Positions 403 through 48,828 of a DNA stretch of 60,794 nt are shown one piece after another. Where the stretch lies: NCBI GenBank assembly GCA_027658995.1, contig JAQDQK010000021.1, forward strand, positions 1-60,794. Direction: 5' to 3'. Positions within the stretch are counted from its first letter, which is position 1. Each line of letters opens with the position of its first letter. The position numbers were made by a program, and so were the translations under genes. The notes beneath the pieces are model-generated. The model did no database searches, was not told the DNA's origin, and saw nothing but the letters and a program-made list of their open reading frames with translations. Origin of the DNA: Propionibacteriaceae bacterium AM104-82 (GTDB taxonomy: Bacteria > Actinomycetota > Actinomycetes > Propionibacteriales > Propionibacteriaceae).

Positions 403-1677
403 TCAGACTCCTCGCTGGCTGCCGTCTGCGATCGTCATCATCAGCTCACATGCCATGGAGTTCGACCAGCTGAACCAGGCACGAGTGAACGTGTCCGGGT
501 CGTCCACGTCGAAGCCCTCGTGCGTCCAGCCGGTACCGCCGTCGGTGGCGAGGATCGTCTGCAGGCAGGCGCGAGCCTCCTCGGGGGTGCCGGTCAGGCC
601 CTGCACCGCCAGGGCGATGTGCCACACGTAGCGCGGTGGCGTGTGCGGGCTGCCGATGCCGGCGGCATAGCGTCCGGAATAGAAGAAGGGGTTGCGCTCG
701 CTCAGCACCCAATCGCGAGTGGCCTGGTACCGCGGGTCGGCGCTGGCGACGTCCGAGGTCAGCGGCAGCGACAGCAGTGACGGCATGTTCGCGTCATCCA
801 TGAACAGCTGCCCTCCCAGCCCGTCGACCTCGTAGGCGAACCGCCCTTCGACGACGCCATAGCGTTCCACGCCGTTTGCGATCTCGTCGGCCAGCGCGGT
901 GGCATCGGACTTCAACGACTCCTCTCCCCAGTGGTCGGCGAACTCGCCGATCTGCCGCAGTGCCCGCAATGCCATGAACTGGGCGGGGATGTTGTATCCG
1001 TAGGTGCAGGCGTCATCGGAGGGCCGGAAGCCGCTCCAGGTCATGCCCGTGTGGGCGACCGGGGTGCCGCGCCCGTCCGGCCCGAGGGTATCGCCCGGCT
1101 CCGAGTCGCGGACGTGGCGGTAGGTCGACCCTTCGAAGTGGCGTTGCTCGGTGCGCCAGAGCTCGACGATGGCTCGGCAGCCGGAGCGGACGGCGGCATC
1201 CAGATGGCCTGCGTCGCCGGTGGTGCGCCACAGCCGTGCGGCGAGGTCCACAGCAAAGGCGAGCGAGTCGATCTCGTATTTGCGCTCCCACACCCCAGGG
1301 TCGAGCTCCAGGTCCTCCGCGTCGAAGTGTGCGCCGGTAGGCCCGTCGTTGAAGGCGTTGGCGTACGGGTCCAGCGCGATGCAGGCCCACTGCCTGGTCA
1401 CGACGCCCCGCAGCACCTCCGCCACCTCCCGGACGTGGGCGAGCCGCAGGAAGGGCAGCACCTGTGCGGAGGAGTCCCGCAACCACATGGCGGGAATGTC
1501 GCCGGTGATGACGAAGACCCCCTGCGGGCCACGCGTCATGGTGGTGCCCCAGGTGTCGAGCAGCATCGCCTCGAAGCGTTCGGCGGCGACAGGACCGACT
1601 GTGGCGTCGATGCGGGCCGCCCAGCCGCGGATCTCCGCGACGAGGGCCTCACCAGGTGGGTTGGTGATGGGACGCAT
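403..1677 (-). CDS. Glycoside hydrolase family 125, exo-alpha-1,6-mannosidase
   Basis: This 424-residue protein matches the GH125 (DUF1237) family, inverting exo-alpha-1,6-mannosidases that trim non-reducing alpha-1,6-mannose from high-mannose N-glycans and yeast mannan. The family hallmark DIPAMWLRDS is at about residues 60-69, followed by a block with SGFRPSDD and TYGYNIP that carries the expected acidic residue, and a C-terminal AWFSWSNSM block. There is no signal peptide, so it should act in the cytoplasm. The start is ATG at 1677, with GAAGGGA upstream, 12 bases after the GH20 stop. It is the last gene of the HAD-GH20-GH125 operon. Length is normal for the family. Confidence 0.93.
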   Translation of the reverse strand: MRPITNPPGEALVAEIRGWAARIDATVGPVAAERFEAMLLDTWGTTMTRGPQGVFVITGDIPAMWLRDSSAQVLPFLRLAHVREVAEVLRGVVTRQWACIALDPYANAFNDGPTGAHFDAEDLELDPGVWERKYEIDSLAFAVDLAARLWRTTGDAGHLDAAVRSGCRAIVELWRTEQRHFEGSTYRHVRDSEPGDTLGPDGRGTPVAHTGMTWSGFRPSDDACTYGYNIPAQFMALRALRQIGEFADHWGEESLKSDATALADEIANGVERYGVVEGRFAYEVDGLGGQLFMDDANMPSLLSLPLTSDVASADPRYQATRDWVLSERNPFFYSGRYAAGIGSPHTPPRYVWHIALAVQGLTGTPEEARACLQTILATDGGTGWTHEGFDVDDPDTFTRAWFSWSNSMACELMMTIADGSQRGV

Positions 1678-1689
1678 ACTGGATTCCCT

Positions 1690-3225: not shown

Positions 3226-3923
3226 CACGAGAGAGCCTCCGGGTGCCATGCGGAGATCCGCGGATCGGTCAGGTCAGCAACGTTGAGGTGGCCTAGGTGT
3301 GCCGCCTCCGGCCCGATGGTCACGACGAATGCGCCAGCTGCGCGGGCCGCCATCGCGCCCATCGGGGAGTCCTCGAACACTACACAGTCGCCGATCGCCG
3401 CTCCACAGCAGGCGGCGGCTGTCAGGTACAGATCGGGGGCCGGCTTGGGGTGCTCCACGTCCTCGGTGCCGAGCGCGGCCGTGAACATCTGGCCCCAGCC
3501 GAGCGAGGAGACCACATGTTCGACGACGGCGGTAGGCGAGTTGGAGGCGATGGTGATCGGCACCGTGATGCTCAGCCGCTGGATAAGGTCGAGCGCTCCG
3601 GCTGTCGGTCGCACCCCATCCGCGAGCTGTCCCATGAGCAGGTCGATCATCCGCTGCGACAAGGCGACCGGGTTGGCGTCGGGAAAGTCGCGCAGCAAAT
3701 CGTCGACGACATCGCGCACCGTGCCGCCGAGGACCCCCTTGCCTGCGGCGTCACCGCCAGCCTCCTCCCAGAGCTGCCGAGCAGCCGCGAACCAGGCATC
3801 CTCCGAAGCCACCAGGGTGTTGTCCATGTCGAAGAGCACTGCGGCCACCCGTTGGGGCAGCCGCGTGCTGGTCGTCGTCGCGCCGCTCAAAGGTCCTCCC
3901 AGAAGTCGTCCGCCCCTCAGCAT
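3225..3923 (-). CDS. HAD-superfamily sugar-phosphate phosphatase / beta-phosphoglucomutase-like
   Basis: This 232-aa HAD subfamily IA protein has the nucleophile motif I, AVLFDMDNTLV, at about residues 27-37 (first Asp nucleophile), motif II Ser/Thr in TIASNSPT, and the acidic motif IV in VFEDSPMGAMAARAAG. Such proteins dephosphorylate sugar phosphates or isomerise phosphoglucose. It is the first gene of a HAD-GH20-GH125 operon, divergent from a PfkB kinase. ATG at 3923 gives a long lead-in before motif I; a TTG about 30 bases inside, preceded by GGGAGG, is an alternative. A GATAAT -10-like hexamer lies just upstream on this strand. The substrate cannot be fixed from sequence. Confidence 0.85.
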   Translation of the reverse strand: MLRGGRLLGGPLSGATTTSTRLPQRVAAVLFDMDNTLVASEDAWFAAARQLWEEAGGDAAGKGVLGGTVRDVVDDLLRDFPDANPVALSQRMIDLLMGQLADGVRPTAGALDLIQRLSITVPITIASNSPTAVVEHVVSSLGWGQMFTAALGTEDVEHPKPAPDLYLTAAACCGAAIGDCVVFEDSPMGAMAARAAGAFVVTIGPEAAHLGHLNVADLTDPRISAWHPEALS

Positions 3924-3997
3924 AACCAGCCTGATTATCTTTGACCATTTCGAGCGAGTTTGCTCAATTTTCGTCCACTGCCGGTAGATTCCGTGCC
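3924..3997. promoter_or_regulatory. Divergent promoter region with GAGC-N6-GCTC operator candidate
   Basis: The short gap between the divergent HAD and PfkB genes holds GAGC-GAGTTT-GCTC at 3952-3965, flanked by TTTC and AATTTTC. A similar site, GCTC-GTTTTT-GAGC, is in front of the DeoR gene at 12643-12656. Both contain TTGAGCAA (or its complement) and CGCTCG. A TAGATT -10-like hexamer (3985-3990) ends 7 bases before the PfkB ATG, so that transcript may be leaderless. The DeoR-family protein of this locus is the natural candidate binder. Confidence 0.55.
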
Positions 3998-4963
3998 ATG
4001 CAGGCTTCCCCCACCGCCGATGTGCTCACCGTCGGCCTCTCCTACCGCGACCTCATCTTCACGGGGGTGGACCAGCTCCCCGAGCCAGGCGAGGAACGGT
4101 ACGCGGGAGGCTTCCACGAGATGTGGGGCGGCATCGCCACCATGGCACGCATCTGCGCGGCACTAGGCATGAACACCTCGCTTGCCACCGCCGTCGGCTC
4201 GGACGACTCCAGCCTGCGTCTGCTGAGCGAGGCCCAGGCCGCTGGCATCGACACCAGCCTGACGGCCCGGCACGAAGGGTGGCGGCTGCCCGTCACCGTC
4301 GCCATGTCGCTGTCGCACGACCGGGCCATGCTGACCGTCGAGGACGACCTCCCCACCGACGTCGCCGCACACCTGGCCGACCAGACGTTCCACGTCCCGG
4401 CCATCATCGTCGACCTGCGCGACCCCGCCGCCCCGTGGTTGCAGCGCTCCCGCGCCGCAGGCTCGACGGTATTCGCGTCCCGCGGCTTCGACCCCACCGG
4501 GCGCTGGAGCGATGACGAGCTCAGCGGCCTTGGCGGGACCGACGTGTGGATGCTCAACGACTTGGAAGCGACCTCCTTCACAGGCCTCGCCGACCCCCTC
4601 GCTGCTGCGCGGCGGCTCTCCCGCCGTGTGCCTCTGGTCGTGGTGACCAGGGGTGCGGCAGGCATGGTCGCCGTGGATTCGGGCACGGGTGCGGAGGCGA
4701 CGGTACCTGCCTTCCCGGTGACCCCACGCAGCACCACCGGAGCCGGTGACACGACGCTGGCCGCCCTCGCCTTCGCGCACGGCCTGCCCTGCGCCGGGTT
4801 GGAGGACCAGTTGAATGTCGCTGCCTTCGTCGCCAGTGCGGTGCTCGCGTCGCCGCAGGGTGCAGGCACCCCGCCCACCCGGCAGCAGCTGACGAACCTG
4901 CTGGCATTGAGCGAGGACCCCCGCGCCAGGCGACTGCGCGACATGCTGGGTGCTGCGCGATGA
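3998..4963 (+). CDS. PfkB-family carbohydrate kinase
   Basis: This ribokinase-fold sugar kinase has the PfkB signature 2, TTGAGDTTLAALAF, with the catalytic base Asp at residue 251 and the anion-hole GAG before it. The early glycine-rich substrate segment YAGGFHEMWGGIATMARICAALG is also present. The start at ATG 3998 (MQASPTADVLTVG) is preferred over an upstream TTG at 3941, which would place the promoter inside the gene. It phosphorylates a sugar or nucleoside of unknown identity; in this locus, a sugar released by the mannosidases or hexosaminidase is likely. Its stop overlaps the next gene's ATG by 4 bases, so the two are translationally coupled. Confidence 0.88.
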   Translation: MQASPTADVLTVGLSYRDLIFTGVDQLPEPGEERYAGGFHEMWGGIATMARICAALGMNTSLATAVGSDDSSLRLLSEAQAAGIDTSLTARHEGWRLPVTVAMSLSHDRAMLTVEDDLPTDVAAHLADQTFHVPAIIVDLRDPAAPWLQRSRAAGSTVFASRGFDPTGRWSDDELSGLGGTDVWMLNDLEATSFTGLADPLAAARRLSRRVPLVVVTRGAAGMVAVDSGTGAEATVPAFPVTPRSTTGAGDTTLAALAFAHGLPCAGLEDQLNVAAFVASAVLASPQGAGTPPTRQQLTNLLALSEDPRARRLRDMLGAAR

Positions 4964-6345
4964 CCACGCCCTTCTCGATATTGGTGTTCGGCGACACCCA
5001 GTACCTCTTCGACGGCGAACGTCGACGCCCCGAGTTCCTGCGCGAAACCTTCCGCCATGTCCGTGCACTGCTGGACCGCAGAGCCATCGCCCCGCTGCGC
5101 CACATCGTCCACGTCGGCGACGTCACCGAACACGGCTGGCCGGACGAGGTCGAGGCCGCGCTGGCCGTACTCGCTGCCGGGGCGACGCTCCTGGGACGGC
5201 CTGGCATGACCATCGCGACCGGCAACCACGATGTCGCCCACCACTCGGACGATGAACGAGGCCCAACACCGTTCCGAGCCACCTTCGGGCCAGGCTGCCA
5301 ACTGCTGGCCGGAGGTCACGCGGCAGGAATCGAACACGGCCCAGGCGGCTACCCGTCGTGGCGCGTGGTCACCGCCTCACACAAGACTCGACTCGGGGTG
5401 CTGGCTTTGGACTGGCGACCGTCCGAGACCGGTTGGCGCTGGGCCGACGAGGTGCTGACGGCGCACGCCGACGTCCCCACCATCGTGGTGAGCCACGAGA
5501 CGGCCCACGACGGCGCCCTCACTCCGCACGGAGAGCTGATCCAGGCGCTGCTGAGCAGCCACCCACAGGCCTTCCTCGTGCTCGGCGGGCACGAATGGCC
5601 CAGCACCCGCGTGAGCCTGCCTGGGCGCGAGTACCACGCCGTCAACTATCAGGAACTGCCGTTCGGCGGCGCGGGGGCCGCGCGCGTCTACGAGTTCGAC
5701 CCCCGCAGGGGCGAGTGTCAGGTGAGGTCGCTGTGCCCGGCCGTCGAACTGCCGGAGATCGCGCGCTCAGTAGAGGCGCGTCGACGGCTGGCTCTCAGCC
5801 GCGCCGACGACCAGTTCGCGTTCCCGCTGCCCTCAAAGCTCGGCGGGAGGGAGATTCCGTGGCAGGCAGAGGGGCTGCGGCTGGTGGCCGACGTCTGCCC
5901 TGACGGCGAAGCCGAGTTCGATCTGGAGCTGGCCAGAGGCTTCGTCCTCCAGGTCGACGCGACGTTGCCCACGGCGATGCAGGATGCCTGGCAGGTCTTG
6001 CTGACCAGGTTAGGCCCGGCGCCGGACGGGTCCGCAGAGCCGCTGGCGGCGATGAGCCTGTCGTCGGAGAACTTCCTGGGCTGGATGGCGTTCACTAGCA
6101 GCGGCGAGACCTGGGCGACCTCACACGAGAACCGACCGGGGGCCCAGGTGAGCATCGTCGTGGCCAACGGCCCTGAACCGGGAGTCTGGGTCGACGGCGA
6201 CGCGGTGGGACGGGTCGACGACCAGCTCGCAGGACCGCTGGCGCAGGGCACCTGGCGCTGGCGCGTCGGCGCGGGCGAGTACGGGGGCCAGTGGGCCGAC
6301 CCGTTCCGCGGCACGGTGCGCCGGGTCAGGGCCTGGGCCGACTGA
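4960..6345 (+). CDS. Calcineurin-like metallophosphoesterase with C-terminal beta domain
   Basis: The N-terminal ~270 residues are a binuclear metallophosphoesterase: GDTQY near residue 11, HVGDVTEHG near 48-56, TGNHD near 87-91, then VVSHETAHDG and LGGHEWP supply the remaining metal-binding His. The C-terminal ~170 residues look like an all-beta, LamG/concanavalin-type module that may bind carbohydrate. There is no signal peptide. It is coupled to the PfkB kinase by an ATGA overlap and its stop codon abuts the convergent phosphodiesterase stop (TGATCA). Together with that enzyme it suggests that the glycan handled here carries phosphomono- or phosphodiesters. The substrate is unknown. Confidence 0.85.
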   Translation: MTTPFSILVFGDTQYLFDGERRRPEFLRETFRHVRALLDRRAIAPLRHIVHVGDVTEHGWPDEVEAALAVLAAGATLLGRPGMTIATGNHDVAHHSDDERGPTPFRATFGPGCQLLAGGHAAGIEHGPGGYPSWRVVTASHKTRLGVLALDWRPSETGWRWADEVLTAHADVPTIVVSHETAHDGALTPHGELIQALLSSHPQAFLVLGGHEWPSTRVSLPGREYHAVNYQELPFGGAGAARVYEFDPRRGECQVRSLCPAVELPEIARSVEARRRLALSRADDQFAFPLPSKLGGREIPWQAEGLRLVADVCPDGEAEFDLELARGFVLQVDATLPTAMQDAWQVLLTRLGPAPDGSAEPLAAMSLSSENFLGWMAFTSSGETWATSHENRPGAQVSIVVANGPEPGVWVDGDAVGRVDDQLAGPLAQGTWRWRVGAGEYGGQWADPFRGTVRRVRAWAD

Positions 6346-7356
6346 TCACCACTCGAACGACGGATCGCGGGTGGGACCGACAGGTTCGACGTCGCGCTGG
6401 ACGCCGACATCCTCAGCGTCCCAACTGCCCTGGCGGATGCCCAGCGCGTCTAGAAGCAGCCACATCACCTGCTCACTCCGCAGGACGGAGGCCGCGGCCA
6501 GCGGCTCGGGCAGCCGCCCGCCCACGCGGTGCGTGATCAGGAAGCTGCGGCGCACCTCCACCTCGTCCTCCCCGTGGCCGCCTTCCGGCTTGTGGCCGTG
6601 ATCGGTGGTGACAGCGATCAGCCAGTCCTCCCCCAACTGTTCGTGGCGTTCCGACACTGCCTTGACGAGGTGGCGCGTCCACTCGTCGGCCTGGCGCATC
6701 GCGCAGCGGTACTCCTCGGAGTCGGCACCGAACTCGTGGCCCGCAGCGTCCACTCCTTCGAAGTACACCACTGAGGCGTCCGGGCCTTCGTGCAGCAGAC
6801 GCCACGCGGCCCACTCGGCGACCTCCGCGTCGGAGACGCCGATCCCGCGGCTGATCCCGGGGTGGAACACCTGGTGCTGCCCGGTGCGCTGCTGGTCGGT
6901 CCGCGACTGGAGGATCGGGCCCGGCGCCTTGACGAAAGCATCCCAAGTCGCCGCGACCATCGTCCGGGCGGCGGGGTTGGCGAAGTAGACCCTGGAGAGA
7001 ATGTCAGGTCGGCGGGCCAGGTCGTGGCCCACGAACTCATTCCACCAGACGTTGCACTCCTCGTGGGTGGAGCCGGTCAGGATCGACGACCACCCCGGCC
7101 CGGAGTCGGTCGGCGGCGTCATCCACATGGGAATGATCCGCCCCCCGGAGTGGCCCGCGGCGGTGTGCAGCCGAGCCAAGGTGGGCATCAGCGGTCCCGC
7201 GGCAGCGGCGACGTCGACCGTGTTGTCGGCGCCGCCCGTGCTGAACCGCTGGTCGGACGGGTGGTCGGGCGCTGCGAAACCGGGGTCCGCAGCAACGGCA
7301 GCTGGGAGGGCCACATCTACCCTGACGCCGTCAATGCAGATGAATAGGAGTTTCAT
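6346..7356 (-). CDS. Alkaline-phosphatase-fold type I phosphodiesterase / nucleotide pyrophosphatase family
   Basis: This 336-aa protein belongs to the alkaline phosphatase superfamily of metal-dependent phosphodiesterases. The first metal ligand is in LLFICIDGVRVD (residues 3-14), the nucleophile region is GWSSILTGSTHEE, and metal ligands follow in YFEGVDAAGHEFG and TTDHGHKPEGGHGEDE. No signal peptide is visible, unlike many secreted relatives. It is the last gene of the DeoR-GH4-GH38 operon and overlaps GH38 by ATGA. An attractive but unproven role is cleavage of a phosphodiester in the imported glycan (for example mannose-phosphate-mannose). A nucleotide pyrophosphatase role is also possible. 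Confidence 0.83.
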   Translation of the reverse strand: MKLLFICIDGVRVDVALPAAVAADPGFAAPDHPSDQRFSTGGADNTVDVAAAAGPLMPTLARLHTAAGHSGGRIIPMWMTPPTDSGPGWSSILTGSTHEECNVWWNEFVGHDLARRPDILSRVYFANPAARTMVAATWDAFVKAPGPILQSRTDQQRTGQHQVFHPGISRGIGVSDAEVAEWAAWRLLHEGPDASVVYFEGVDAAGHEFGADSEEYRCAMRQADEWTRHLVKAVSERHEQLGEDWLIAVTTDHGHKPEGGHGEDEVEVRRSFLITHRVGGRLPEPLAAASVLRSEQVMWLLLDALGIRQGSWDAEDVGVQRDVEPVGPTRDPSFEW

Positions 7357-10300
7357 GCGTTCCTCCGGAGACGGAGCGTGAGGATCTGGAATGGATGAAG
7401 GGCGAGTGTGACGGCACCAGCCACCTTCCCGCCCGGGAACTGCTGCGTGGCCCGCTCGACGGGCTGCTCAAGCAGGTCTACCTCCGTGATTTTGGCTGAC
7501 GGCTCCGCTAGTTCGAGGCTCAACCGGCTCCGCGCACCTGCCGCCTCGTGCAGCCGGACGATGAGGTCCCCTGACCCGTCGAAGGCAGGTTTGATCGCGT
7601 CGATCACCGCCCAAGACTGTTCGCTGGCGGGGGTCAGGCTCACCGGTGCCGACAGGTTCAACGAACCGGCGAGCACCCGGAGCGGCTGGTTGAGCCGTAG
7701 CCCGGCAGCGTGCGACGCCTCCAGATCCGTACCGACGGCAAGGCTATAGCGCAGCGTGTGCCTGCCAGCGTCGGCGGCGGGATCGGGCGAGTTGGGTGCC
7801 CGGAGAAGGCTGAGCCTCGCCTCGACGCCGCCCGTGGGACTGGCCTCGGAGCCACCGGCCACGACGACATCGTGCCCGTAGCCGCTGTCGGTGCTGAGGG
7901 TGACGCCGTAGCCCGGCTCGCGCAGCCACAGCCAACGATGCGCCACGGTCTCGAACCTCGCGTGGTCCCACGACGTGTTGACGGCGATGGGACGATCCAC
8001 GTGTCCGAATTGCATCTCGGCGGCGGTGTGGGTGGCGCGCACGTCGAGCGGGAAGACGACCTTGAGCAGCTTCTCCCGCTCCTGCCAGTCCGCCTCGACG
8101 GCGAAGTCGACAGCAGCTGAACCGGCGTCCAGCGAGATCACCTGCGTGAGCCTGGAGCTGTTGACCTGCCGCGTCACGTGCACCGTGGCGCGCAGGTCGG
8201 AGTCGAGCCTTACCTCGATATCCTCCAGGCCAGTGAGGTCCTGAGACGAACGCAGGTACTGGGCCTCGAGCTCCCAGGCATCGAAGCAGCTCGGGTGGTC
8301 GGGGTGCAGGCGCAGCACATTGGCCCGCTGGCCAGGCAGCAGCACCTCCCGCTCGCACGAGAGGTCGAGGACGGAGCTGAGGGTGCCGTCCGCCTCGATG
8401 GCGATGCGGACCAGCCCGTTGTCGAGGACGATCCGGTCGCTGTCACGGGTGAGTCTCACGGGGGCCACCTGCTCTGGCAGGCCGCTGTCGGGGGTCAGCA
8501 CGGCGGCGGAGAAGGGCTCCGCCGACACCAGACGAAGGTCGCCGTCGACCTGGATAACCTCTGTGCGGCGCGCGTCGGACGGGTTAAGGAGGGAGTGGCC
8601 GCCGTCGGTGCTCAGCTTGTCCCACGCCACGTCGAGCAGTTCCCCGACCTCGGTGAGGATGGCGTCGTATTCGGCAATGGCTTCGCGGTTGACCCAGGCT
8701 GTGCTGCTGCCGGGAAGGATGTCGTGGAACTGGAGCACCAGCACGCGGCGCCAAAGTTCCTCGAGTTTGACGTGCGGGTACTCGTGGTCGGCGGTCGCGG
8801 CGGCCGACGCCAGCCATTCGATCGCCTGGAGTGCAGCCTCACTGCGACGGTTGCCCTGCTTGAGGGCCATCAGCGACGTGAAGATGCCGCGGTGGAACTC
8901 GAGGTACAGCTCCCCCGTCCAGGTGTCGGGGTCGTACTCGGCCCGCGCGGAGCGCTCGAACTCGGCGGGCGAGCCGTGGGACAATACGGGACCCCCCTCC
9001 AGGTCGGCGAACCGGCGGACGCGCTCGACCATCTCCCGGACAGGACCTCCCCCGCCGTCGCCGTAACCGTAGGGCAGCAGTGAATGACGGGCCCGGCCCT
9101 TCTCCTTGAAGTTGCGCTCGGCGCCCAGCACCTCTTCGGCGCTGACGGTCGAGTCATACGAGTCACATGGCGGGAAGTGTGTCCAGATGCGCGTGCCATC
9201 GATCCCCTGCCACCAGAAAGTGTGGTGGGGCAGCTTGTTGGTGCGGTTCCAGGACAACTTCTGCGTGAAGAACCAGCGCATCCCGGCCAGGCGCGCGATC
9301 TGCGGCAACTGCCCGTTGTAGCCGAACGAATCGGGCAGCCAGAGGCAGTCGGTGGTGACCCCGAACTCGTCCTTCATGAATCTCAGCCCGGAGGTGAACT
9401 GGCGAACCAGCGACTCGCCGCTGGGCATCATCGCATCGGGCTCGATCCACATACCGCCGACAAAGTGCCACTGGCCACGGTCGATGGCCTCACGCACGCG
9501 GTCATACACCTCAGGCGAGTCCTGCTTGACCCACAGATGGTGTTGCGGTGCCGAGTTCGCGAAGTGAAAATCTGGGTACTCGTCGGCGAGGGCCACGACG
9601 TTGCTGAAGGTGCGCACGATCTTGCGTCGTGTCTCGCGGATCGGCCAGAGCCACGCGGTGTCGATGTGCGCATGACCCACAGCGGTCATGTGCTGGGCGG
9701 AGCCAGCGGCCCCGCTGCTGAGCAGTGGTTTCAGGATCTCACGGGCGGTACCCGCGCCGGCTGCGACACCGTCGGTGTCAACGGCGTCGGCGGCGTCCTC
9801 GAGCCCCCGCAGGAGCACCGCACGCCAAGTCGAGTCGACCGGAAGCTGACGCATCAGGCCGTCCAACACGTCCAGGTCGAGGTGAAGCCCCCAGACTTCC
9901 TCGTCCCGCTCGACGATCTCGGCTCCCCCGAAGCGCCACACTGGGCGTTCGGCCCGGGTAAGGGTGTCGCCCTCCTGCGTCGACCGCCCAAGCTTGAGCG
10001 TCATGTCCGGGTTCGCGGCGGCCTCGATCATGAGCTCCACGGACCCGTCGCCACCGATCAGGGCACGCTGCTCAGCCAGGGAGCCGAAGGTCAGCGGCAC
10101 GGTGCGGTTCATCGGGTTGACCGCCTTCAACGGCCAGCCGTCAACGGTGTAGACCATGCCCTCGGACTGGTTACCTGCCCAGTCCCCGACGAATCCGAGG
10201 TCGACGCGCAGTTCGAGCCTGCGCGTGGTGTCGTCGGCGGGAACGGCCCCGCGGACCTTAAGCCACCACGTCGACCAGGCTGGTCCCCAGAGGGTGTCGA

Positions 10301-10469
10301 CCGGGAACGGAAGGTACTGCGCTGCTGCCGCTTCCTCGAACGGCACCGGCTCGCCGGGCACCTGCCAGGCTGAGACCTCCAGCGGTGCGACGACACGGTA
10401 GAGGCCGCCCGCCACACGCTCCCGCAGCCGCTCCAGTCGTTCCTCCACCAACTCGCGGTTGTCGTGCAT
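7353..10469 (-). CDS. Glycoside hydrolase family 38 alpha-mannosidase
   Basis: At 1038 residues this is the usual length of bacterial GH38 alpha-mannosidases. The zinc-binding motif GHAHIDTAWLWP is at about residues 265-276 (H266, D270), and the nucleophile Asp is in MWIEPDAMMPSGESLVRQF (D345). Further expected motifs are LWLPDSFGYNGQLPQI and the middle-domain REAIAEYD region. There is no signal peptide, so it acts on imported alpha-mannosides. ATG at 10469 overlaps the GH4 stop as ATGA, and its own stop overlaps the phosphodiesterase start the same way. It should complement GH125 (alpha-1,6) by removing alpha-1,2, alpha-1,3 or other mannose links; the exact linkage is not readable from sequence. 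Confidence 0.95.
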   Translation of the reverse strand: MHDNRELVEERLERLRERVAGGLYRVVAPLEVSAWQVPGEPVPFEEAAAAQYLPFPVDTLWGPAWSTWWLKVRGAVPADDTTRRLELRVDLGFVGDWAGNQSEGMVYTVDGWPLKAVNPMNRTVPLTFGSLAEQRALIGGDGSVELMIEAAANPDMTLKLGRSTQEGDTLTRAERPVWRFGGAEIVERDEEVWGLHLDLDVLDGLMRQLPVDSTWRAVLLRGLEDAADAVDTDGVAAGAGTAREILKPLLSSGAAGSAQHMTAVGHAHIDTAWLWPIRETRRKIVRTFSNVVALADEYPDFHFANSAPQHHLWVKQDSPEVYDRVREAIDRGQWHFVGGMWIEPDAMMPSGESLVRQFTSGLRFMKDEFGVTTDCLWLPDSFGYNGQLPQIARLAGMRWFFTQKLSWNRTNKLPHHTFWWQGIDGTRIWTHFPPCDSYDSTVSAEEVLGAERNFKEKGRARHSLLPYGYGDGGGGPVREMVERVRRFADLEGGPVLSHGSPAEFERSARAEYDPDTWTGELYLEFHRGIFTSLMALKQGNRRSEAALQAIEWLASAAATADHEYPHVKLEELWRRVLVLQFHDILPGSSTAWVNREAIAEYDAILTEVGELLDVAWDKLSTDGGHSLLNPSDARRTEVIQVDGDLRLVSAEPFSAAVLTPDSGLPEQVAPVRLTRDSDRIVLDNGLVRIAIEADGTLSSVLDLSCEREVLLPGQRANVLRLHPDHPSCFDAWELEAQYLRSSQDLTGLEDIEVRLDSDLRATVHVTRQVNSSRLTQVISLDAGSAAVDFAVEADWQEREKLLKVVFPLDVRATHTAAEMQFGHVDRPIAVNTSWDHARFETVAHRWLWLREPGYGVTLSTDSGYGHDVVVAGGSEASPTGGVEARLSLLRAPNSPDPAADAGRHTLRYSLAVGTDLEASHAAGLRLNQPLRVLAGSLNLSAPVSLTPASEQSWAVIDAIKPAFDGSGDLIVRLHEAAGARSRLSLELAEPSAKITEVDLLEQPVERATQQFPGGKVAGAVTLALHPFQILTLRLRRNA

Positions 10470-11857
10470 CAGGACTGCTCCTTGAGGTAGGAGAGGTCGT
10501 CGAAGTTGGCCACGAGGTCGTCGAGGAGTTCCTCGGCGACGCCGAACGAGTCGACCAGCGGGTGGTGGGTGAGCGCCAGCAACGCGTCCTGGCGGGACTT
10601 GTTGACGGCAGCGTCGATGGTGCGCTGCTCGACATACTTCGCGTTGACGACCATGCCTCGCCCATGGTCGGGCAGCTCGGCGCCGGGAAGGGGCGTGACG
10701 CCGTTACCGTCCACCCGGCAGGGGATCTCGATCACGGCGGCGTCGTCCAGGTCGGGCAGGATGGAGTTGTTCGCGACGTTGAGGATCAGCTCCGCGGGCA
10801 CGTCATTGGCGATTGCGTGCATGATGGCCAACGCCACCTTGTCGTAGCCGCCCGTCTCCAGGTCGGCGTCGTCACGCTCGAAGCTTCCCGCAGCCTCGCG
10901 GTTGGTGGCCATGTAGGTGACTTCGCGCTCAAGGCGGGTCTGTTCCCAGAGGTCGTAGGCGCTGCTCTGTGCGGTTCCCACCGCCTCGTAGAAGCGGCCC
11001 TGCTGTTCGAGCAAAAAGCGGCCTCTGGTCTGGTCGGTGCCGCTGTCGATGGTCAGGTCTTCACGGGAGAAGTAGTAGTAGTGCAGGTACTCGTTGGGTA
11101 CCGCGCGGAGCGCCTTGACGAGTTCCGCCCCGAAGAGGCGGCCCTCCTCGAAGCTCTCGATCAGATCGGGGCGCTCGAACAGGCGCGGGAGCACGTCTTC
11201 GCCGTCGATCTCGAGGCCGGTCAGCCAGCCGAGATGGTTGAGGCCGGCGTAGCGCAGCCGGACCCGGTCGCTGCCGGCGCTGAGCAGCGGCACGTCCGGC
11301 GAGACCAGACCGGCCCGCTTCAGGACGTCGATGATGCGGCGGGCCATGCCAACCGGGGAATCGCAGATGCCGATGACGCGCTCACCGAGGTGCCGCTGCA
11401 TCACTTCGGTGATCACTCCGGCAGGGTTGGTGAAGTTGATCACCCAGGCGTCGGGCGCGAACTCCTTAATGGCGCTGACCACCTCAAGCACAGCCGGAAT
11501 GCCGCGCAGCGCGTAGGAGATGCCGCCGGCTCCGACAGTCTCCTGGCCGATCACACCGTGGCTGAGTGCGATCTGCTCGTCCAAGGCGCGCCCGGCGGTG
11601 CCACCGACACGGACGGCGGAGAAGATGAAGTCGGTGTCGCTGATCGCTTCGCGGAGATCGGTCGTGCTGATCAGCTCGGGAGCCTCGTCGGAGGATTCTG
11701 ACAGCTCGCGGAGCACACGGGTGATCGCCTCCAGCCTGCTAGCGTCGGTGTCGTAGAGACGCAGCTGCGTGACCCGCTCAGGGGCCTCGTCCGCCAGGAG
11801 TGCTTTGTAGACGAGCGGCACACGGAAACCGCCGCCGCCGAGGATGGTGAGCTTCAT
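10469..11857 (-). CDS. Glycoside hydrolase family 4 (NAD-dependent 6-phospho-glycosidase type)
   Basis: GH4 enzymes hydrolyse glycosides by an NAD+- and metal-dependent oxidation-elimination route, often on 6-phospho sugars. The Rossmann start is MKLTILGGGGFRVPLVYKAL, and the family motifs GVIGQETVGAGGI, INFTNPAG, GICDSPVGMARR (Cys metal ligand) and LNHLGW (His metal ligand) follow. It resembles the 6-phospho-beta-glucosidase subgroup. I start it at ATG 11857; the longer reading into the DeoR gene is an artefact. It overlaps DeoR upstream and GH38 downstream, each by ATGA. No PTS is present here, so any 6-phosphate would have to come from the substrate or the PfkB kinase. Confidence 0.92.
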   Translation of the reverse strand: MKLTILGGGGFRVPLVYKALLADEAPERVTQLRLYDTDASRLEAITRVLRELSESSDEAPELISTTDLREAISDTDFIFSAVRVGGTAGRALDEQIALSHGVIGQETVGAGGISYALRGIPAVLEVVSAIKEFAPDAWVINFTNPAGVITEVMQRHLGERVIGICDSPVGMARRIIDVLKRAGLVSPDVPLLSAGSDRVRLRYAGLNHLGWLTGLEIDGEDVLPRLFERPDLIESFEEGRLFGAELVKALRAVPNEYLHYYYFSREDLTIDSGTDQTRGRFLLEQQGRFYEAVGTAQSSAYDLWEQTRLEREVTYMATNREAAGSFERDDADLETGGYDKVALAIMHAIANDVPAELILNVANNSILPDLDDAAVIEIPCRVDGNGVTPLPGAELPDHGRGMVVNAKYVEQRTIDAAVNKSRQDALLALTHHPLVDSFGVAEELLDDLVANFDDLSYLKEQS

Positions 11858-12609
11858 ACTGTCCTGATTTCGATGTTGTGGAGTGCGCACCGTTCCGCCA
11901 GAGTCGGTGCAAGTTGAGCGGCGTCGGTAATGATCCCGTCCAGTTCGTCGATGTCGAACGGGGAATTGCCGCCCTTTCCGGGGAACTTGTCCGCGTCGGC
12001 GAGCAGGTGGGCCTTGGTAGACGCTGCCCTGATGGCGCGCTTCACGTCGCTCTGCGCGTAGGAGGTGTCGCGGACCCTCCCGGAGTCCGAGATGCCCGAG
12101 CATCCTAAGAAGGCAAGATCCGCGTGCTGACGCGCAAGGGCGTCGGAAACCTGCACGCCGGTGAGGCATTGATACTGCTCGGACCAACGCCCGCCGAGCA
12201 GGACGATGTCGGCCCGGTGGGTCGAACGGAAGTGCTCAAAGGTTGGCAGGGAGGCGGTCAGCACCGTCACATCCTTGGCTTCCATCGCCAGGGCCACGTA
12301 GTGCGCCGTGGTGCCGATGTCGAGGATCACGGTCGCCCCGTCAGGGATGAGGGCGGCCGCGGCGGCGCCGATGCGCTGCTTGCTGGCGCCCCGTCTCGCA
12401 AGCGCCTCCTGGAATGGGTCGTCCATCTCGCGGTGGAGTTGGACCCCTCCCCAGGTGCGCTCGACCAGGCACTGTTCCTCCAGTTCGGCGATGTCGCGCC
12501 GAACCGTGGCCGGACTCGCCTGCAGCATGTCGGCGACCTCGGTCACCGCCACCGGTCCGCGCGCATGGAGCAGGCGGAGTAGTGCTTCATGACGGGCAGA
12601 TTTCAACAC
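11854..12609 (-). CDS. DeoR/GlpR-family transcriptional repressor
   Basis: The N-terminal ~55 residues form the DeoR winged helix (LLRLLHARGPVAVTEVADML then SPATVRRDIAELE). The C-terminal DeoR sensor domain has the sugar-phosphate-binding signature DIGTTAHYVA and LADADKFPGKG. Such repressors usually respond to a phosphorylated sugar intermediate, which fits a locus with a kinase and phosphatases. It begins with GTG at 12609, heads the GH4-GH38-phosphodiesterase operon and is divergent from the ABC importer. GAGC/GCTC inverted repeats lie in its own control region and in the HAD/PfkB gap, so it probably autoregulates and controls the whole locus. Confidence 0.92.
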   Translation of the reverse strand: MLKSARHEALLRLLHARGPVAVTEVADMLQASPATVRRDIAELEEQCLVERTWGGVQLHREMDDPFQEALARRGASKQRIGAAAAALIPDGATVILDIGTTAHYVALAMEAKDVTVLTASLPTFEHFRSTHRADIVLLGGRWSEQYQCLTGVQVSDALARQHADLAFLGCSGISDSGRVRDTSYAQSDVKRAIRAASTKAHLLADADKFPGKGGNSPFDIDELDGIITDAAQLAPTLAERCALHNIEIRTV

Positions 12610-12930
12610 AAGAGCAAACGTACCCCACGAGTCGCCAGTTTCGCTCGTTTTTGAGCAATTCGATCAATCTTCTTCACTCTGTCGAGTTTTGTTGCTACAT
12701 TGGGTAGGACAACGACGGTCGAGGAAGATCAAGCGACGTGCAATCCCTAGTCATGCTCCATTTGAGCACAAAGCGCCACGGGCGGGCCCCCACCGGGTCG
12801 GCGCTCGCGTCGCGCGGTGCGTCCCCTCATGGTCGAGGACGTTCACCCAAGCCGCCTTGCACATACTTGATCGATTCCTTCATGCCTACTTGGGCCCCCA
12901 GCTACTCCACATCCACTAACTAGGAGAGAC
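12610..12930. promoter_or_regulatory. Divergent control region, DeoR operon against ABC importer, with two GAGC inverted repeats
   Basis: This 321-base gap has no credible gene. It holds GCTC-GTTTTT-GAGC at 12643-12656 (inside TTTCGCTCGTTTTTGAGCAA) and TGCTC-CATTT-GAGCA at 12754-12768. The first resembles the site between the HAD and PfkB genes. The ABC transcript probably has a leader of up to 200 bases. The first importer gene is preceded by AGGAGAG at 12922-12928. I see no convincing riboswitch fold. Confidence 0.55.
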
Positions 12931-14241
12931 ATGACAGTTTCACGAAGAGCAATCATCCAGGGCGGAGCTGCAGGGCTCGGCTTTCTGACCCTCGGGCTCG
13001 CCGGCTGTTCGTCGGCCGCACCACAGGGCGGCTCCACGCCTGGCGGATCCGCAGGCGCGGCCACCAACTTGGTCCTGTGGACCTGGCCCGAGGGCTTCGG
13101 CAAGCGAGCGCTCGGGGAGGTTGCGTCTCAGTTCCCCCAGTACCAGGTCCGCCAGGATGTCATCGGAGGCGACTTCAAGCAGAAGCTCACCACGACCTTC
13201 ACGGCGGGCTCAGGCCTCCCTGACATCACTGGCGTCAAGGGTGAGGACATCGCCTTCTTCAAGAGCCAAGCCAAGTTCTTCGTCGATCTCAACACGCTAG
13301 GCGCTGCGGACATCAAGGGCGACTACCTCGAGTACAAGTGGAACCAGGCCACCACCGAGGACGGCAAGCAGATCGGTATCCCGATCGACGTCGGACCCAC
13401 CGCACTGTTCTACCGTGTAGACATCTTCGAACAGGCAGGCCTCCCCACCGATCCCCAGGAACTTGCCGCGTCGATCCGCACCTGGGACGAGTACATCGAA
13501 CTCGGCAAGAAGCTCCTGGCGGCCAAGCCCAACACCTACCTCATCCGCAACGCAAGCGGACTGTTCGACACCGGATGGCAGCAGAGCGGCAAGGGCTTCA
13601 TCGACGCCGATGGAGTCTTCATCGGAGATCAGCAGCACATCCGCAGCGCATGGGATACCGCGGTGAAGGCGCTCGACGCCGGCATCGTCGCGACCATTGA
13701 GTCGAACACTGCCGACAGCGCCGCCGCCGTCAGCGAAGGCCGCCTGCCCGCAGACTTTGGGGCGTCCTGGCACCTGGCGGACCTGATGGTCGACGCTCCC
13801 GAGACCGCAGGAAAGTGGCATGTCTGCGAGCACCCGGGAGAGGCGTTCAACAACGGCGGCTCGTTCCTGACGGTCCCCGAGGGCGTGGCGGACCCCGCCA
13901 AGTCATTCGAGGTCATCAGGTTCCTTCTCAACGCTCAGAACCAGGCCTACGAGTTTGAGGACAAGGGTAACTTCCCTGCTACGCCGGCGTCCTTCACGAT
14001 GCCTGAGGTCGCGGGGCCCGTCGAGTTCCTCGGTGGCCAGGTGGCCGCAGAGGTCTTCGGCCACGCCGCAAAGACCATCATTCCGCGCTTCGAGCACTTC
14101 AACGAGGGCACTGTCAACGCGCCGTTCTATGCCGAGATCGACCTCGTCGAGGCTTCTGGCAAGGATCCAAACAAGGCGTGGGACGATGCCGTGACCGCTG
14201 CGAAACGCCTCGCGCAGCAGGTCGGCCTTACGGTGAAATGA
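12931..14241 (+). CDS. ABC sugar transporter, substrate-binding lipoprotein
   Basis: This is a family 1 extracellular solute-binding protein (436 aa). The N terminus carries a twin-arginine motif (SRRAII, residues 4-9), a hydrophobic core and a lipobox ending in LAGC with the lipidated Cys at 26, followed by a Gly/Ser-rich linker. The mature part reads as a sugar-binding fold, with LVLWTWPEGFGKRA and ITGVKGEDI near its start. It should capture an oligosaccharide outside the membrane for the two permeases that follow; its stop overlaps the first permease ATG. Position next to intracellular mannosidases and hexosaminidase makes an N-glycan-type oligosaccharide the likely ligand. Confidence 0.93.
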   Translation: MTVSRRAIIQGGAAGLGFLTLGLAGCSSAAPQGGSTPGGSAGAATNLVLWTWPEGFGKRALGEVASQFPQYQVRQDVIGGDFKQKLTTTFTAGSGLPDITGVKGEDIAFFKSQAKFFVDLNTLGAADIKGDYLEYKWNQATTEDGKQIGIPIDVGPTALFYRVDIFEQAGLPTDPQELAASIRTWDEYIELGKKLLAAKPNTYLIRNASGLFDTGWQQSGKGFIDADGVFIGDQQHIRSAWDTAVKALDAGIVATIESNTADSAAAVSEGRLPADFGASWHLADLMVDAPETAGKWHVCEHPGEAFNNGGSFLTVPEGVADPAKSFEVIRFLLNAQNQAYEFEDKGNFPATPASFTMPEVAGPVEFLGGQVAAEVFGHAAKTIIPRFEHFNEGTVNAPFYAEIDLVEASGKDPNKAWDDAVTAAKRLAQQVGLTVK

Positions 14242-15218
14242 GCGTGTCTGCCAGTAGGCGTGGAGATGCCCAGATCTCCCCGCCGGTCGACAACTTCCGT
14301 ACGTTGTCGACCTGGCAGCGCGTCAAGAAGGCGCTGCCTCAGTACGGTGCCGTATCCCCGTACTTCATCCTGTTCCTGCTGTTCGGCGCCATGCCCATGG
14401 TGTTCACCATGGCCCTGGCGTTCACCAACTGGTCAGGGCTCGGCGACATTCATTTTATCGGCTTGGAGAACTTCCGGTACCTGATCACCGACCGTCTCTT
14501 CTACAAGTCACTGGTCAACACGATCGTGTTGTGGGTCATGGGCACGGTTCCCACCTTGGTGATCGCGACGATTGTGGCCCTGATGCTGAACTCAACCCTG
14601 AGATTCTCGACCACCTACCGCGTCATCTACCTGATTCCCAACGTCACCTCGATGGTGGCAATGGGCATCTTGTTCAGTTCGCTGTTCTCCAGTCAGTTCG
14701 GTTTGGCCAACTCACTCGTCAACCTCTTCGGTTTCGACAACATCGCCTGGCTCCAGAACGAGTGGGGCATCAAGATCGCCATCTCCGCGCTGACGACCTG
14801 GTCGTTCGTCGGATACAACGCCCTCCTGATCCTCGCGGGGCTCCAGGCCATCGACAAGACACAGTACGAGTCGGCAGCAATCGACGGGGCCAACGGGTGG
14901 CGGACGTTCTTCCACATCACTCTGCCACAGTTGCGCTCGATCGTACTGTTCATCACCCTGATGTCGACGATCGGTTCGCTCCAGAGCTTCACAGAGGCCC
15001 AGGTCCTGACCTCGTCAATGAGTTCCGGATCGGCATCGGCGGGTGGCGTAGGGAACTCCGGGCTGACGATGGTCCTGTACTTCTACTCCGTCGCATTCCA
15101 GGAGAACCGCTTCGGATACGGCGCCACCATCGCTTGGGGCGTGTTCGTCGTGGTGATGTTCTTCTCGGCCATCAACTGGCTCGTTACGCGTGAGCGCAAG
15201 GTGAGGGGTGTGCGATGA
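14238..15218 (+). CDS. ABC sugar transporter permease (MalF/UgpA type)
   Basis: This is an integral membrane permease of 326 residues with six predicted membrane segments, starting after a ~40-residue cytoplasmic arm (SPYFILFLLFGAMPMVFTMAL is the first). The EAA loop that docks the ATPase is YESAAIDGANGWRTFFHITLP. ATG at 14238 overlaps the binding-protein stop as ATGA; the upstream in-frame start at 14178 lies inside that gene and is rejected. No ATP-binding gene is in the operon, so a shared MsiK/MsmX-type ATPase encoded elsewhere is expected, as is common for actinobacterial sugar importers. Confidence 0.94.
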   Translation: MSVSASRRGDAQISPPVDNFRTLSTWQRVKKALPQYGAVSPYFILFLLFGAMPMVFTMALAFTNWSGLGDIHFIGLENFRYLITDRLFYKSLVNTIVLWVMGTVPTLVIATIVALMLNSTLRFSTTYRVIYLIPNVTSMVAMGILFSSLFSSQFGLANSLVNLFGFDNIAWLQNEWGIKIAISALTTWSFVGYNALLILAGLQAIDKTQYESAAIDGANGWRTFFHITLPQLRSIVLFITLMSTIGSLQSFTEAQVLTSSMSSGSASAGGVGNSGLTMVLYFYSVAFQENRFGYGATIAWGVFVVVMFFSAINWLVTRERKVRGVR

Positions 15219-16120
15219 GTTCCATGAGTGAGCGCGCTGTACCGGCTGCTCTTGCCGGCGCGGCGATCGAGACCAATCGGCGACCGAGAAGAAAGCCGCT
15301 AACGAGGCGGGGTGCGATTCCCCGTCACCTGGCCTTGTTCGCTGGCGCACTCGTCTCGCTGTTCCCGTTCTACTGGATGTTCGTCCTCTCAACGAACGAG
15401 TCGGCCGTCATCTACCAGTACCCACCGGTGATGACGCCTGGCGACAAGCTCGCGACCAACTACGGGTCGATTATGGAGCGCATCAACATCTGGGGCGCGA
15501 TGTCGAACACCCTCATCGTGGCAGTCAGTGTTACGGTGCTCGTGCTGCTGATCTCCTCGCTCGCGGCGTTCGCCTTCGCCAAGTTCACCTTCCCCGGCAA
15601 GAATGTGCTGTTCACCATCGTCCTCGCGACGTTTCTGTTGCCCTCACAGTTAGCAACCATCCCGCAGTTCCTGTTCATGAGCAAGCTTGGTTGGGTGGGT
15701 GACCTGAAGGCGCTAATCTTCCCATCCCTGGCGAGCGCTTTCGGCGTGTTCTGGTTGCGCCAGTACACCACCAATGCGTTGCCGACGGAGCTTCTGGAGG
15801 CTGCCACAATCGACGGAACGGGGTTCCTGCGCCAGTATTGGCACGTCTGCCTTCCTACGATCCGTCCCGCATTGGCGTTCCTAGGGATGTTTACCTTCAT
15901 CGGTTCTTGGAACGATTTCATGTGGCCATTGATCGTGTTGAACGACCCGAGCAAGCTGACCCTGCAGGTCGCCCTCAGCCAGCTGAAGACCGCACACGGC
16001 ACGGACTACGGCATGCTCATGGCCTCATCGCTGATCGCCGTCCTTCCGCTGCTACTGATCTTCGCGCTTGGCGCGAAGCAGTTCATGGCTGGCATCACAG
16101 AGGGCGCCGTCAAGGGCTGA
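15215..16120 (+). CDS. ABC sugar transporter permease (MalG/UgpE type)
   Basis: This is the second permease of the importer, 301 residues. Six membrane segments are visible (LALFAGALVSLFPFYWMFVL is the first) and the EAA loop reads LLEAATIDGTGFLRQYWHVCLP. ATG at 15215 overlaps the preceding permease stop by 4 bases. It would form the heterodimeric channel with the upstream permease. A strong hairpin follows its stop codon, ending the operon. Confidence 0.94.
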   Translation: MSSMSERAVPAALAGAAIETNRRPRRKPLTRRGAIPRHLALFAGALVSLFPFYWMFVLSTNESAVIYQYPPVMTPGDKLATNYGSIMERINIWGAMSNTLIVAVSVTVLVLLISSLAAFAFAKFTFPGKNVLFTIVLATFLLPSQLATIPQFLFMSKLGWVGDLKALIFPSLASAFGVFWLRQYTTNALPTELLEAATIDGTGFLRQYWHVCLPTIRPALAFLGMFTFIGSWNDFMWPLIVLNDPSKLTLQVALSQLKTAHGTDYGMLMASSLIAVLPLLLIFALGAKQFMAGITEGAVKG

Positions 16121-18775: not shown

Positions 18776-18939
18776 GACGGCCTCCTGGAGCGTGCCACTG
18801 AATGACAACTGGTGTGCGACCGATCGTGTCACAGGTGCCGGTCGTAGGACCCTCAGACGAGGCTCGCGTGGCACCGAGGGAGGCGGTCGCCCAAGCGCAG
18901 GATCACCGGGCAGTTCAGCGTGCGTCCTCGCACGGATTG

Positions 18940-19012
18940 TGGAGCATAGGGGACTCGAACCCCTAACTTCCACCTTGCAAAGGTGGCACTCTACCAATTG
19001 AGTTAATGCCCC
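18940..19012 (-). tRNA. tRNA-Ala(UGC)
   Basis: The complement folds as a 73-base cloverleaf. The acceptor stem starts GGGGCAT and ends ATGCTCC with discriminator A; the D arm is followed by GCCACCTTTGCAAGGTGG with anticodon TGC; and the T arm is AGGGGTTCGAGTCCCCT. CCA is not encoded. The identity is Ala by anticodon. Confidence 0.97.
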
Positions 19013-43837: not shown

Positions 43838-43839
43838 CC

Positions 43840-45204: not shown

Positions 45205-45255
45205 TGCGGTAGTCATGCCGATTTCCGTGTCACGGTCCGCTGGTAAGTTGGGGCC

Positions 45256-46188: not shown

Positions 46189-46190
46189 GC

Positions 46191-48755: not shown

Positions 48756-48777
48756 GCGGGCCTGCAGAACACCCGGC

Positions 48778-48783
48778 TATGAT
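48778..48783 (+). promoter_or_regulatory. -10 of dnaN
   Basis: TATGAT lies 45 bases before the dnaN GTG, with a GGGGAGC ribosome binding site. The -35 is unclear. Confidence 0.45.
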
Positions 48784-48828
48784 GCTGGCGACGAGCTTTT
48801 GCACAACGGACCATCAAAGGGGAGCTTC

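What the first reader, a model, noticed from the sequence alone, without database searches (positions are those of the whole stretch)
403..16120. Self-contained intracellular locus for a possibly phosphorylated high-mannose glycan
GH125 exo-alpha-1,6-mannosidase, GH38 alpha-mannosidase and GH20 hexosaminidase sit with a GH4 enzyme, a PfkB kinase, a HAD phosphatase, a calcineurin-like phosphoesterase, an alkaline-phosphatase-fold phosphodiesterase, a DeoR regulator and an ABC importer. None of the hydrolases has a signal peptide. Known mannoside loci usually lack two different phosphoesterases. The combination suggests import of a whole oligosaccharide bearing phosphomono- or diesters (for example yeast phosphomannan or mannose-6-phosphate N-glycan) and cytoplasmic dismantling. 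The phosphorylated-substrate part is inference.
Basis: partly seen in the sequence, partly recalled or inferred. Interest (0 to 1): 0.75.

Follow-up and report, generated by a model that had tools for sequence, protein, structure and literature searches.

The report
Mannoside uptake locus with built-in phosphoesterase
This stretch of an actinobacterial genome carries genes for a sugar importer, for predicted mannose-cutting enzymes and for a predicted enzyme of the alkaline-phosphatase type, a set that recurs in related bacteria; the cell likely uses it to import mannose-rich sugar chains that would carry phosphate groups and to take them apart inside, although the phosphate on the sugar is predicted and untested.

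Summary
In detail: window 403-16120 encodes GH125, GH20, HAD, PfkB, a metallophosphoesterase (MPE), an alkaline-phosphatase-superfamily phosphoesterase (AP-PDE), GH38, GH4, DeoR and an ABC importer. Closest named relatives are Tessaracoccus. AP-PDE is a core gene: of 85 near-full-length GH38 loci from 147 genomes of one order, AP-PDE, GH4 and GH125 accompany 12 of 12 in one clade and 0 of 73 elsewhere (9 of the 12 were already known from an AP-PDE search). Six of those genomes also hold a GH38 + GH5_18 N-glycan-type locus, which lacks AP-PDE. Among 40 loci chosen by GH4 alone, a phosphoesterase is present in 7 of 9 with GH38, 2 of 31 without, and 0 of 8 with PfkB but no GH38. So phosphoesterases follow mannosidase and importer, not the kinase alone. 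MPE is lineage-restricted and two expected metal-binding histidines are replaced. The C. acnes ortholog is published as "hypothetical N-glycan-processing locus 2" (PMC6160142), so the locus is not new; the AP-PDE link was not in the passages read. Likely an import-and-dismantle locus for phosphoester-bearing alpha-mannosides; substrate unproven.

The parts
403..1677 (-). GH125 exo-alpha-1,6-mannosidase
   Evidence: PF06824 408 bits; in 12 of 12 loci L081-L092 of the GH38 clade and 15 of 22 GH38 + AP-PDE loci L001-L023
1690..3249 (-). GH20 beta-N-acetylhexosaminidase, no signal peptide seen
   Evidence: PF00728 326 bits; in 11 of 22 GH38 + AP-PDE loci L001-L023
3225..3923 (-). HAD-IA sugar phosphatase (DxDxT motif present)
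   Evidence: PF13419; nearest NCBIfam model HxpB, below its cut-off; motif at residue 32; in 15 of 22 loci
3941..4963 (+). PfkB sugar kinase (GAGD motif); true start may be ATG at 3998
   Evidence: PF00294 80 bits; motif; in 13 of 22 loci
4960..6345 (+). metallophosphoesterase (MPE) with C-terminal lectin-like domain; DTQ and GHEW replace the usual DxH and GHxH
6346..7356 (-). AP-PDE: alkaline-phosphatase-superfamily phosphoesterase, cytoplasmic, metal-ligand set D9 S85 D203 H207 D252 H253 H261 complete
7353..10469 (-). GH38 alpha-mannosidase
   Evidence: PF01074 302 bits and three further GH38-type domains
10469..11857 (-). GH4 NAD-dependent glycosidase, CDSP motif
   Evidence: PF02056/PF11975; closest solved relatives 6-phospho-alpha-glucosidases 6dux and 1u8x
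11854..12609 (-). DeoR-family regulator
   Evidence: PF00455 128 bits, PF08220
12610..12930 (.). divergent promoter region with five GA[GT]CAA hexamers, candidate DeoR operator
   Evidence: 5 in 321 bases against 39 in the whole 60,794-base window and 6 in 5,217 bases of other intergenic sequence; enriched in Tessaracoccus-type loci, few or none in most others
12931..14241 (+). ABC importer substrate-binding lipoprotein
   Evidence: PF13416/PF01547; LAGC lipobox
14238..15218 (+). ABC importer permease A
   Evidence: PF00528 42.9 bits
15215..16120 (+). ABC importer permease B
   Evidence: PF00528 51.8 bits

Best explanation
The locus encodes an importer, predicted alpha-mannosidases and a predicted alkaline-phosphatase-type phosphoesterase (AP-PDE) as one recurring gene set, and likely lets the cell import alpha-mannose-rich oligosaccharides that would carry a phosphoester and dismantle them in the cytoplasm. 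Shown by sequence: the gene content, the recurrence, no visible signal peptides on the enzymes, and the clade-specific tie of AP-PDE to this GH38. Inferred, step by step: the SBP and two permeases take up the oligosaccharide; AP-PDE (helped in some lineages by MPE) cuts the phosphoester so that the mannosidases are no longer blocked; GH38 and GH125 remove alpha-mannose; GH20 removes beta-HexNAc; GH4 cuts a phosphorylated glycoside, whose phosphate is left by AP-PDE or added by PfkB; HAD removes phosphate from sugar phosphates; DeoR senses a phosphosugar and controls the operons.
For: (1) GH38-selected test: among 85 near-full GH38 loci from 147 genomes of one order, AP-PDE, GH4 and GH125 lie beside GH38 in 12 of 12 loci of one clade and in 0 of 73 others; also 0 of 15 distant GH38 loci examined. 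(2) Six of those 12 genomes (G002, G031, G056, G070, G078, G087) also hold a second GH38 locus with a GH5_18-type gene and no AP-PDE, GH4 or GH125; the gene of L155 matches the C. acnes exo-beta-1,4-mannosidase 6gvb at E 7.2e-289, the others by clustering with it. (3) GH4-selected test: AP-PDE or MPE in 7 of 9 loci with GH38, 2 of 31 without (Fisher p 6e-5), and 0 of 8 with PfkB but no GH38. (4) AP-PDE stays where PfkB is missing (9 of the 22 GH38 + AP-PDE loci L001-L023), three of which (L005, L006, L010) also lack GH4. (5) AP-PDE abuts GH38 on the same strand in 20 of those 22 loci. (6) Its metal-ligand residues are invariant in 32 rows and its model is confident. (7) The GH4 CDSP motif resembles CDMP of solved 6-phospho-alpha-glucosidases more than CNVP of a solved 6-phospho-beta-glucosidase. 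(8) GH38 linked to AP-PDE falls in two separate clades plus L049.
Confidence: 0.5

Rival explanations
1. Ordinary N-glycan or high-mannose import locus: the glycan carries no phosphate. The phosphoesterases only tidy up phosphosugars made inside by PfkB, or adjust the DeoR inducer level.
For: GH4 + PfkB pairs exist without GH38 or phosphoesterase (L213-L220), so the phosphate that GH4 needs can be made inside. The C. acnes ortholog was proposed as a second N-glycan locus (PMC6160142, passages). HAD and PfkB are common neighbours of sugar loci (established knowledge).
Against: AP-PDE persists in 9 of 22 loci without PfkB and a phosphoesterase is absent from all 8 PfkB + GH4 loci without GH38. 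The N-glycan-type locus with GH5_18 in the same genomes has none. No beta-mannosidase was recognised in the locus; the published authors noted the same for C. acnes.
Confidence: 0.3
2. The substrate is a glycoinositol-phosphate: the glycan part of a GPI anchor, a fungal or plant glycoinositol-phosphoceramide, or a mycobacterial-type phosphatidylinositol mannoside. AP-PDE and MPE would cut an ethanolamine-phosphate, glycerol-phosphate or inositol-phosphate bond.
For: AP-PDE by sequence matches only ENPP7 and ENPP6 (alkaline sphingomyelinase and a choline-specific glycerophosphodiesterase) among solved structures at E 0.01. MPE resembles GpdQ and sphingomyelinase-like folds. L022 and L023 carry an inositol-monophosphatase-family gene in the run. 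GH2 joins in Kineococcus and Streptomyces.
Against: The ENPP similarity is weak (E 6.5e-4 and 1.2e-3) and the fold is shared with the whole superfamily. GH20 (11 of 22 loci) needs a beta-HexNAc that most such glycans lack (established knowledge). The IMPase family has many substrates.
Confidence: 0.15
3. AP-PDE is a nucleotide or nucleotide-sugar pyrophosphatase/phosphodiesterase that happens to ride in the operon.
For: Best Foldseek matches are Xac NPP and ENPP3, including a UDP-GlcNAc complex.
Against: Strict tie to one GH38 clade (12 of 12 against 0 of 73) is hard to explain for a housekeeping nucleotide enzyme; identity to the NPPs is low (11-16% in Foldseek's listed rows; 19-24% in VIA-align's).
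Confidence: 0.05

Closest known systems
Cutibacterium acnes 'hypothetical N-glycan-processing locus 2' (GH4 AEE71274, GH38 AEE71275, GH125 AEE71278, GH20 AEE71279, HAD, sugar kinase, SBP, permeases; PMC6160142, S6 Fig legend and Table 3, passages read)
   Same: Same enzyme families. The numbering fits the order GH4-GH38-AP-PDE-HAD-GH125-GH20 of L008 C. avidum, whose locus is homologous to the window gene by gene. The paper also notes a GH4 of unknown activity and no beta-mannosidase.
   Different: In the passages read, the remaining genes are called hypothetical proteins and the kinase ROK (PfkB-like in L008 here). By accession number AEE71276 is probably the AP-PDE (inference). A phosphoester-bearing substrate is not in the passages read. 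In the window GH20 precedes GH125 and PfkB-MPE sits between AP-PDE and HAD. MPE was not found in the Cutibacterium loci L008, L009, L012.
C. acnes N-glycan locus 1 (GH38 + GH5_18 + GH20, CaMan5_18 6gvb)
   Same: Importer, GH38 and GH20, cytoplasmic enzymes.
   Different: Has GH5_18; AP-PDE, GH4 and GH125 were not found in 10 of 10 loci L154-L163 that carry the GH38 + GH5_18-type pair.
Streptococcus pneumoniae N-glycan import system (GH38, GH125, GH92; PMC5215778, search listing only; details recalled)
   Same: ABC import and cytoplasmic GH38/GH125 trimming.
   Different: No phosphoesterase described to my recall; not tested here.
Bacteroides yeast alpha-mannan loci with GH76, GH92, GH38, GH125 and a carbohydrate phosphatase (recalled, not read)
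   Same: Alpha-mannan target with phosphate removal.
   Different: SusCD-based, with GH76 and GH92, which most genomes tested here lack.

Membership tests
C. acnes N-glycan locus 2 type | GH4, GH38, GH125, GH20 and HAD together with SBP, permeases and a kinase | tested here: met
   Window genes against the published gene list
C. acnes N-glycan locus 2 type | Same gene order | tested here: inconclusive
   GH4-GH38-AP-PDE order shared with L008; GH125 and GH20 swapped and PfkB placed elsewhere; S6 Fig itself not seen
GH38 + GH5_18 N-glycan core locus | GH5_18 beta-mannosidase in the locus | tested here: not met
   No GH5 among the genes of 403-16120; note that Pfam gave no family for a known GH5_18, but every gene in the span has another assignment. 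GH5_18-type genes are present in loci L154-L163 instead
Alkaline phosphatase superfamily, two-metal phosphoesterase type | Two-metal ligand set D, S/T nucleophile, D, H, D, H, H (roles recalled) | tested here: met
   D9, S85, D203, H207, D252, H253, H261 invariant in 32 of 32 rows; fold. H261 as third histidine ligand is inferred
NPP-type phosphodiesterase | Activity on phosphodiesters rather than monoesters | not testable with these tools
   Phosphatases, NPPs and sulfatases tie in structure
Sulfatase (AP fold) | C/S-x-P-x-R formylglycine motif (recalled) | tested here: not met
   S85-G-P-G-W89; W89 invariant
Class III metallophosphoesterase | DxH ... D ... NH ... H ... GHxH ligand set (recalled) | tested here: not met
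   D12-T-Q14 and G-H211-E-W213 in MPE; the fold is present
GH4 6-phospho-glycosidase | CD/N.P motif, metal Cys and His, catalytic acid and base as in GlvA 1u8x (roles recalled) | tested here: met
   C162, D163, P165, H205, E103, Y254 align with 1u8x and are invariant in 12 rows
GH4 6-phospho-glycosidase | Hydrolysis of a 6-phosphoglycoside with NAD+ and Mn2+ | not testable with these tools
   Needs enzyme assay
Yeast alpha-mannan degrader | GH76 endo-mannanase and GH92 in the genome | tested here: inconclusive
   GH76 in 5 of 16, GH92 in 3 of 16 genomes with the locus; the window's own genome is not held

The most novel reading that the evidence does not exclude
A cytoplasmic phosphoglycan pathway: the importer takes up an alpha-mannoside with a phosphodiester cap (mannose-6-phosphate N-glycan, fungal mannosylphosphate or GPI-like glycan), AP-PDE uncaps it to a mannose-6-phosphate end, and a CDSP-type GH4 releases that sugar as mannose-6-phosphate, making it the first GH4 6-phospho-alpha-mannosidase.
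Probability: 0.2. Interest if true: 0.8.

Novelty: new variant of a known kind. Interest (0 to 1): 0.5.

Why it matters
If true, actinobacteria including Cutibacterium have a dedicated, ABC-based route for phosphorylated mannosides, a kind of glycan thought of mainly as a lysosomal sorting tag or a fungal wall decoration. The pathway would differ from the SusCD/GH76/GH92 route recalled for Bacteroides. It would give a function to an AP-superfamily subfamily and to a GH4 clade for which no substrate was found here. It would also explain why Cutibacterium genomes keep two GH38 loci.

Tried and rejected
Sulfatase reading of AP-PDE: rejected on the motif (S-G-P-G-W instead of C/S-x-P-x-R). Yeast mannan as the sole substrate: weakened by missing GH76/GH92. 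PfkB as the only source of phosphate: weakened. Nucleotide-only function of AP-PDE: not excluded, judged unlikely. A near search in plasmids found no match. A phylogenetically controlled test of GH38 against phosphoesterase had only 3 usable pairs. A first 8-mer motif search in the promoters gave nothing above shuffles; a 6-mer search over ten divergent regions of seven loci gave GATCAA (18 times) and GAGCAA (10 times), with no 6-mer as frequent as 18 in 1000 Markov shuffles, but the motif is weak outside Tessaracoccus-type loci. No paper in the listings for GH4 phosphate recognition looked usable (none opened). Searches for GPI-glycan or phosphomannan loci listed no paper whose title or abstract start describes this locus type; only the listings were read. 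Tessaracoccus + mannosidase gave only PMC6160142.

Rows dropped: in the GH38 tree proteins under 900 residues, loci above L165, 9 rows that duplicate other rows and three quarters of rows L103-L140 were left out. Of the distant GH38 places, 15 were fetched; others (for instance in G065, G016, G123 and short pieces) were not. Of 96 GH4 places 40 were examined: the 32 best less the one in G001 already seen, and 9 of the next group. Several fetched loci are cut by contig ends (L099, L105, L112, L119, L122, L160, L180, L191, L197, L199, L208, L219, L220), so absences there are weaker. Of 229 AP-PDE relatives only the best 80 were kept by the tool; 26 of these 80 hold a GH38 in the stretch (L001-L020, L022, L023, L049, L076, L079, L080) and 54 do not. 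The two protein searches scored only the 7,999 and 7,997 candidates sharing most words. Gene calls come from a home-made codon scorer and missed GH4 and AP-PDE in L091; tblastn found them.
Full report
Check of the observation. The genes form four runs: DeoR-GH4-GH38-AP-PDE (minus strand), PfkB-MPE (plus), HAD-GH20-GH125 (minus) and SBP-permease-permease (plus). Neighbouring reading frames overlap by a few bases in several places (GH38/AP-PDE, PfkB/MPE, DeoR/GH4, permease/permease). No enzyme shows an N-terminal signal by hydropathy, and the SBP has a lipobox. The closest named proteins are from Tessaracoccus. No whole genome is held for the window. The window also holds parA, parB, dnaA and dnaN, so the locus lies about 26 kb from dnaA.

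GH4. The nearest solved structures are 6-phospho-alpha-glucosidases. The CDSP motif resembles their CDMP. It is found in the window and in 20 of 21 GH4 genes of related loci in which the motif could be read; L017 has CDTP and L014 is in pieces. Positions aligned with the metal ligands, acid and base of 1u8x (roles recalled) are invariant in 12 rows. Two arginines of the window GH4, R87 and R275, are also invariant; a role in phosphate binding is recalled or guessed, not tested.

Context from AP-PDE outwards. The best 80 of 229 AP-PDE loci were fetched from named genomes. In L001-L020, L022 and L023 (22 loci), GH38 and an importer are present, and AP-PDE directly follows GH38 in 20 of these 22; L013 and L017 are the exceptions. 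Counting by tblastn over these 22, GH4 is in 19, DeoR in 20, PfkB in 13, HAD in 15, GH125 in 15, GH20 in 11 and MPE in 8. L021 has AP-PDE but no GH38. Streptomyces L076, L079 and L080 have GH38, GH4, DeoR, PfkB, importer, AP-PDE, GH2 and MPE. L049 has a GH38 of another clade next to a distant AP-PDE. The remaining 54 of the 80 loci, L021 included, have no GH38 match in the stretch.

Context from GH38 outwards. To avoid choosing by AP-PDE, GH38 was searched in 147 genomes of the order of T. antarcticus; 76 had a match. The profile was built from AP-PDE-linked GH38s. I fetched about 8.4 kb on each side of 85 near-full-length places (L164 in two pieces and L165 weaker) and of 15 distant ones. AP-PDE, GH4 and GH125 occur in 12 of 12 loci L081-L092, in 0 of 73 loci L093-L165 and in 0 of 15 loci L166-L180. 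Among the 12, PfkB and HAD are in 8, GH20 in 7 and MPE in 2. Six of the 12 genomes also have a second GH38 locus with a GH5_18-type gene; the one tested, in L155, matches the C. acnes enzyme 6gvb. No AP-PDE was found in those loci. A tree of 71 GH38 proteins puts the 28 AP-PDE-linked ones in a 23-row clade, a 4-row Kineococcus-Streptomyces clade and L049 (quick method, some long branches).

Context from GH4 outwards. GH4 was searched in 394 genomes of the class; 94 genomes matched at 1e-100, with 96 places. Forty places were fetched. AP-PDE or MPE is in 7 of 9 with GH38 and 2 of 31 without. PfkB alone does not bring it (0 of 8), although over all 40 loci PfkB is associated too (7 of 16 against 2 of 24). 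The importer SBP and GH2 follow the phosphoesterase equally well, and related genomes are not independent; the pair test on the tree had no power. In the Streptomyces-like loci either AP-PDE or MPE can be the phosphoesterase present, which fits similar roles.

What it does. The reading that explains the pattern best is that the imported alpha-mannoside carries a phosphoester. A phosphoesterase is kept where the mannosidase and importer are, also when kinase and GH4 are missing, and is not found in kinase + GH4 pairs or in the N-glycan-type locus of the same cells. The alternative, that the phosphoesterases tidy up phosphosugars made inside, is weaker but alive. Which phosphoglycan it is cannot be told: GH20 and GH125 speak for N-glycan-like chains, weak ENPP6/7 similarity and an inositol-monophosphatase-family neighbour leave room for inositol-phosphate glycans, and missing GH76/GH92 speak against a full yeast-mannan degrader.

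Known or new. The orthologous C. acnes locus is in print as a hypothetical second N-glycan locus with a GH4 of unknown role and no beta-mannosidase (PMC6160142; 12 of 18 passages shown). I found no report of the phosphoesterase link in the searches (listings, plus passages of that one paper); subscription papers are largely outside the library. It is therefore called a new variant of a known kind of locus.

Noticed in passing
window 42419-49986: dnaA (42419-43834) and dnaN (48829-49986), usually neighbours, are separated by an ABC ATPase (45256-46185) and a MacB/FtsX-type permease (46191-48752).
   Followed up: no
window 12610-12930 and 3924-3997: GA[GT]CAA hexamers, five in the DeoR|SBP region and one in the HAD|PfkB region, enriched in Tessaracoccus-type loci; candidate DeoR operator.
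   Followed up: partly
L187, L188, L191, L193-L200, L202-L208, L210-L212 and L213-L220: GH4 genes of the same CDSP type stand without GH38, PfkB or phosphoesterase in 21 of 40 fetched loci, and with PfkB but no GH38 in 8 more (L213-L220); a kinase + GH4 module of unknown substrate.
   Followed up: partly
L014 3131-16950: In Tessaracoccus coleopterorum several genes of the locus are split by frame breaks (SBP, GH4, MPE, PfkB, GH125 among them), perhaps sequencing errors.
   Followed up: no
window 21422-23446: GH42 beta-galactosidase on the minus strand, not part of the locus.
   Followed up: no
window 52117-53436: Fic/DOC domain protein near the dnaA-dnaN region.
   Followed up: no
window 19659-20807: DUF222 + HNH endonuclease protein, about 650 bases beyond tRNA-Ala(TGC) at 18939-19012.
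   Followed up: no
L022 11354-12118 and L023 11586-12251: Inositol-monophosphatase-family gene next to HAD in two Actinomycetaceae versions of the locus; a protein at L004 3-983 clusters with them.
   Followed up: partly
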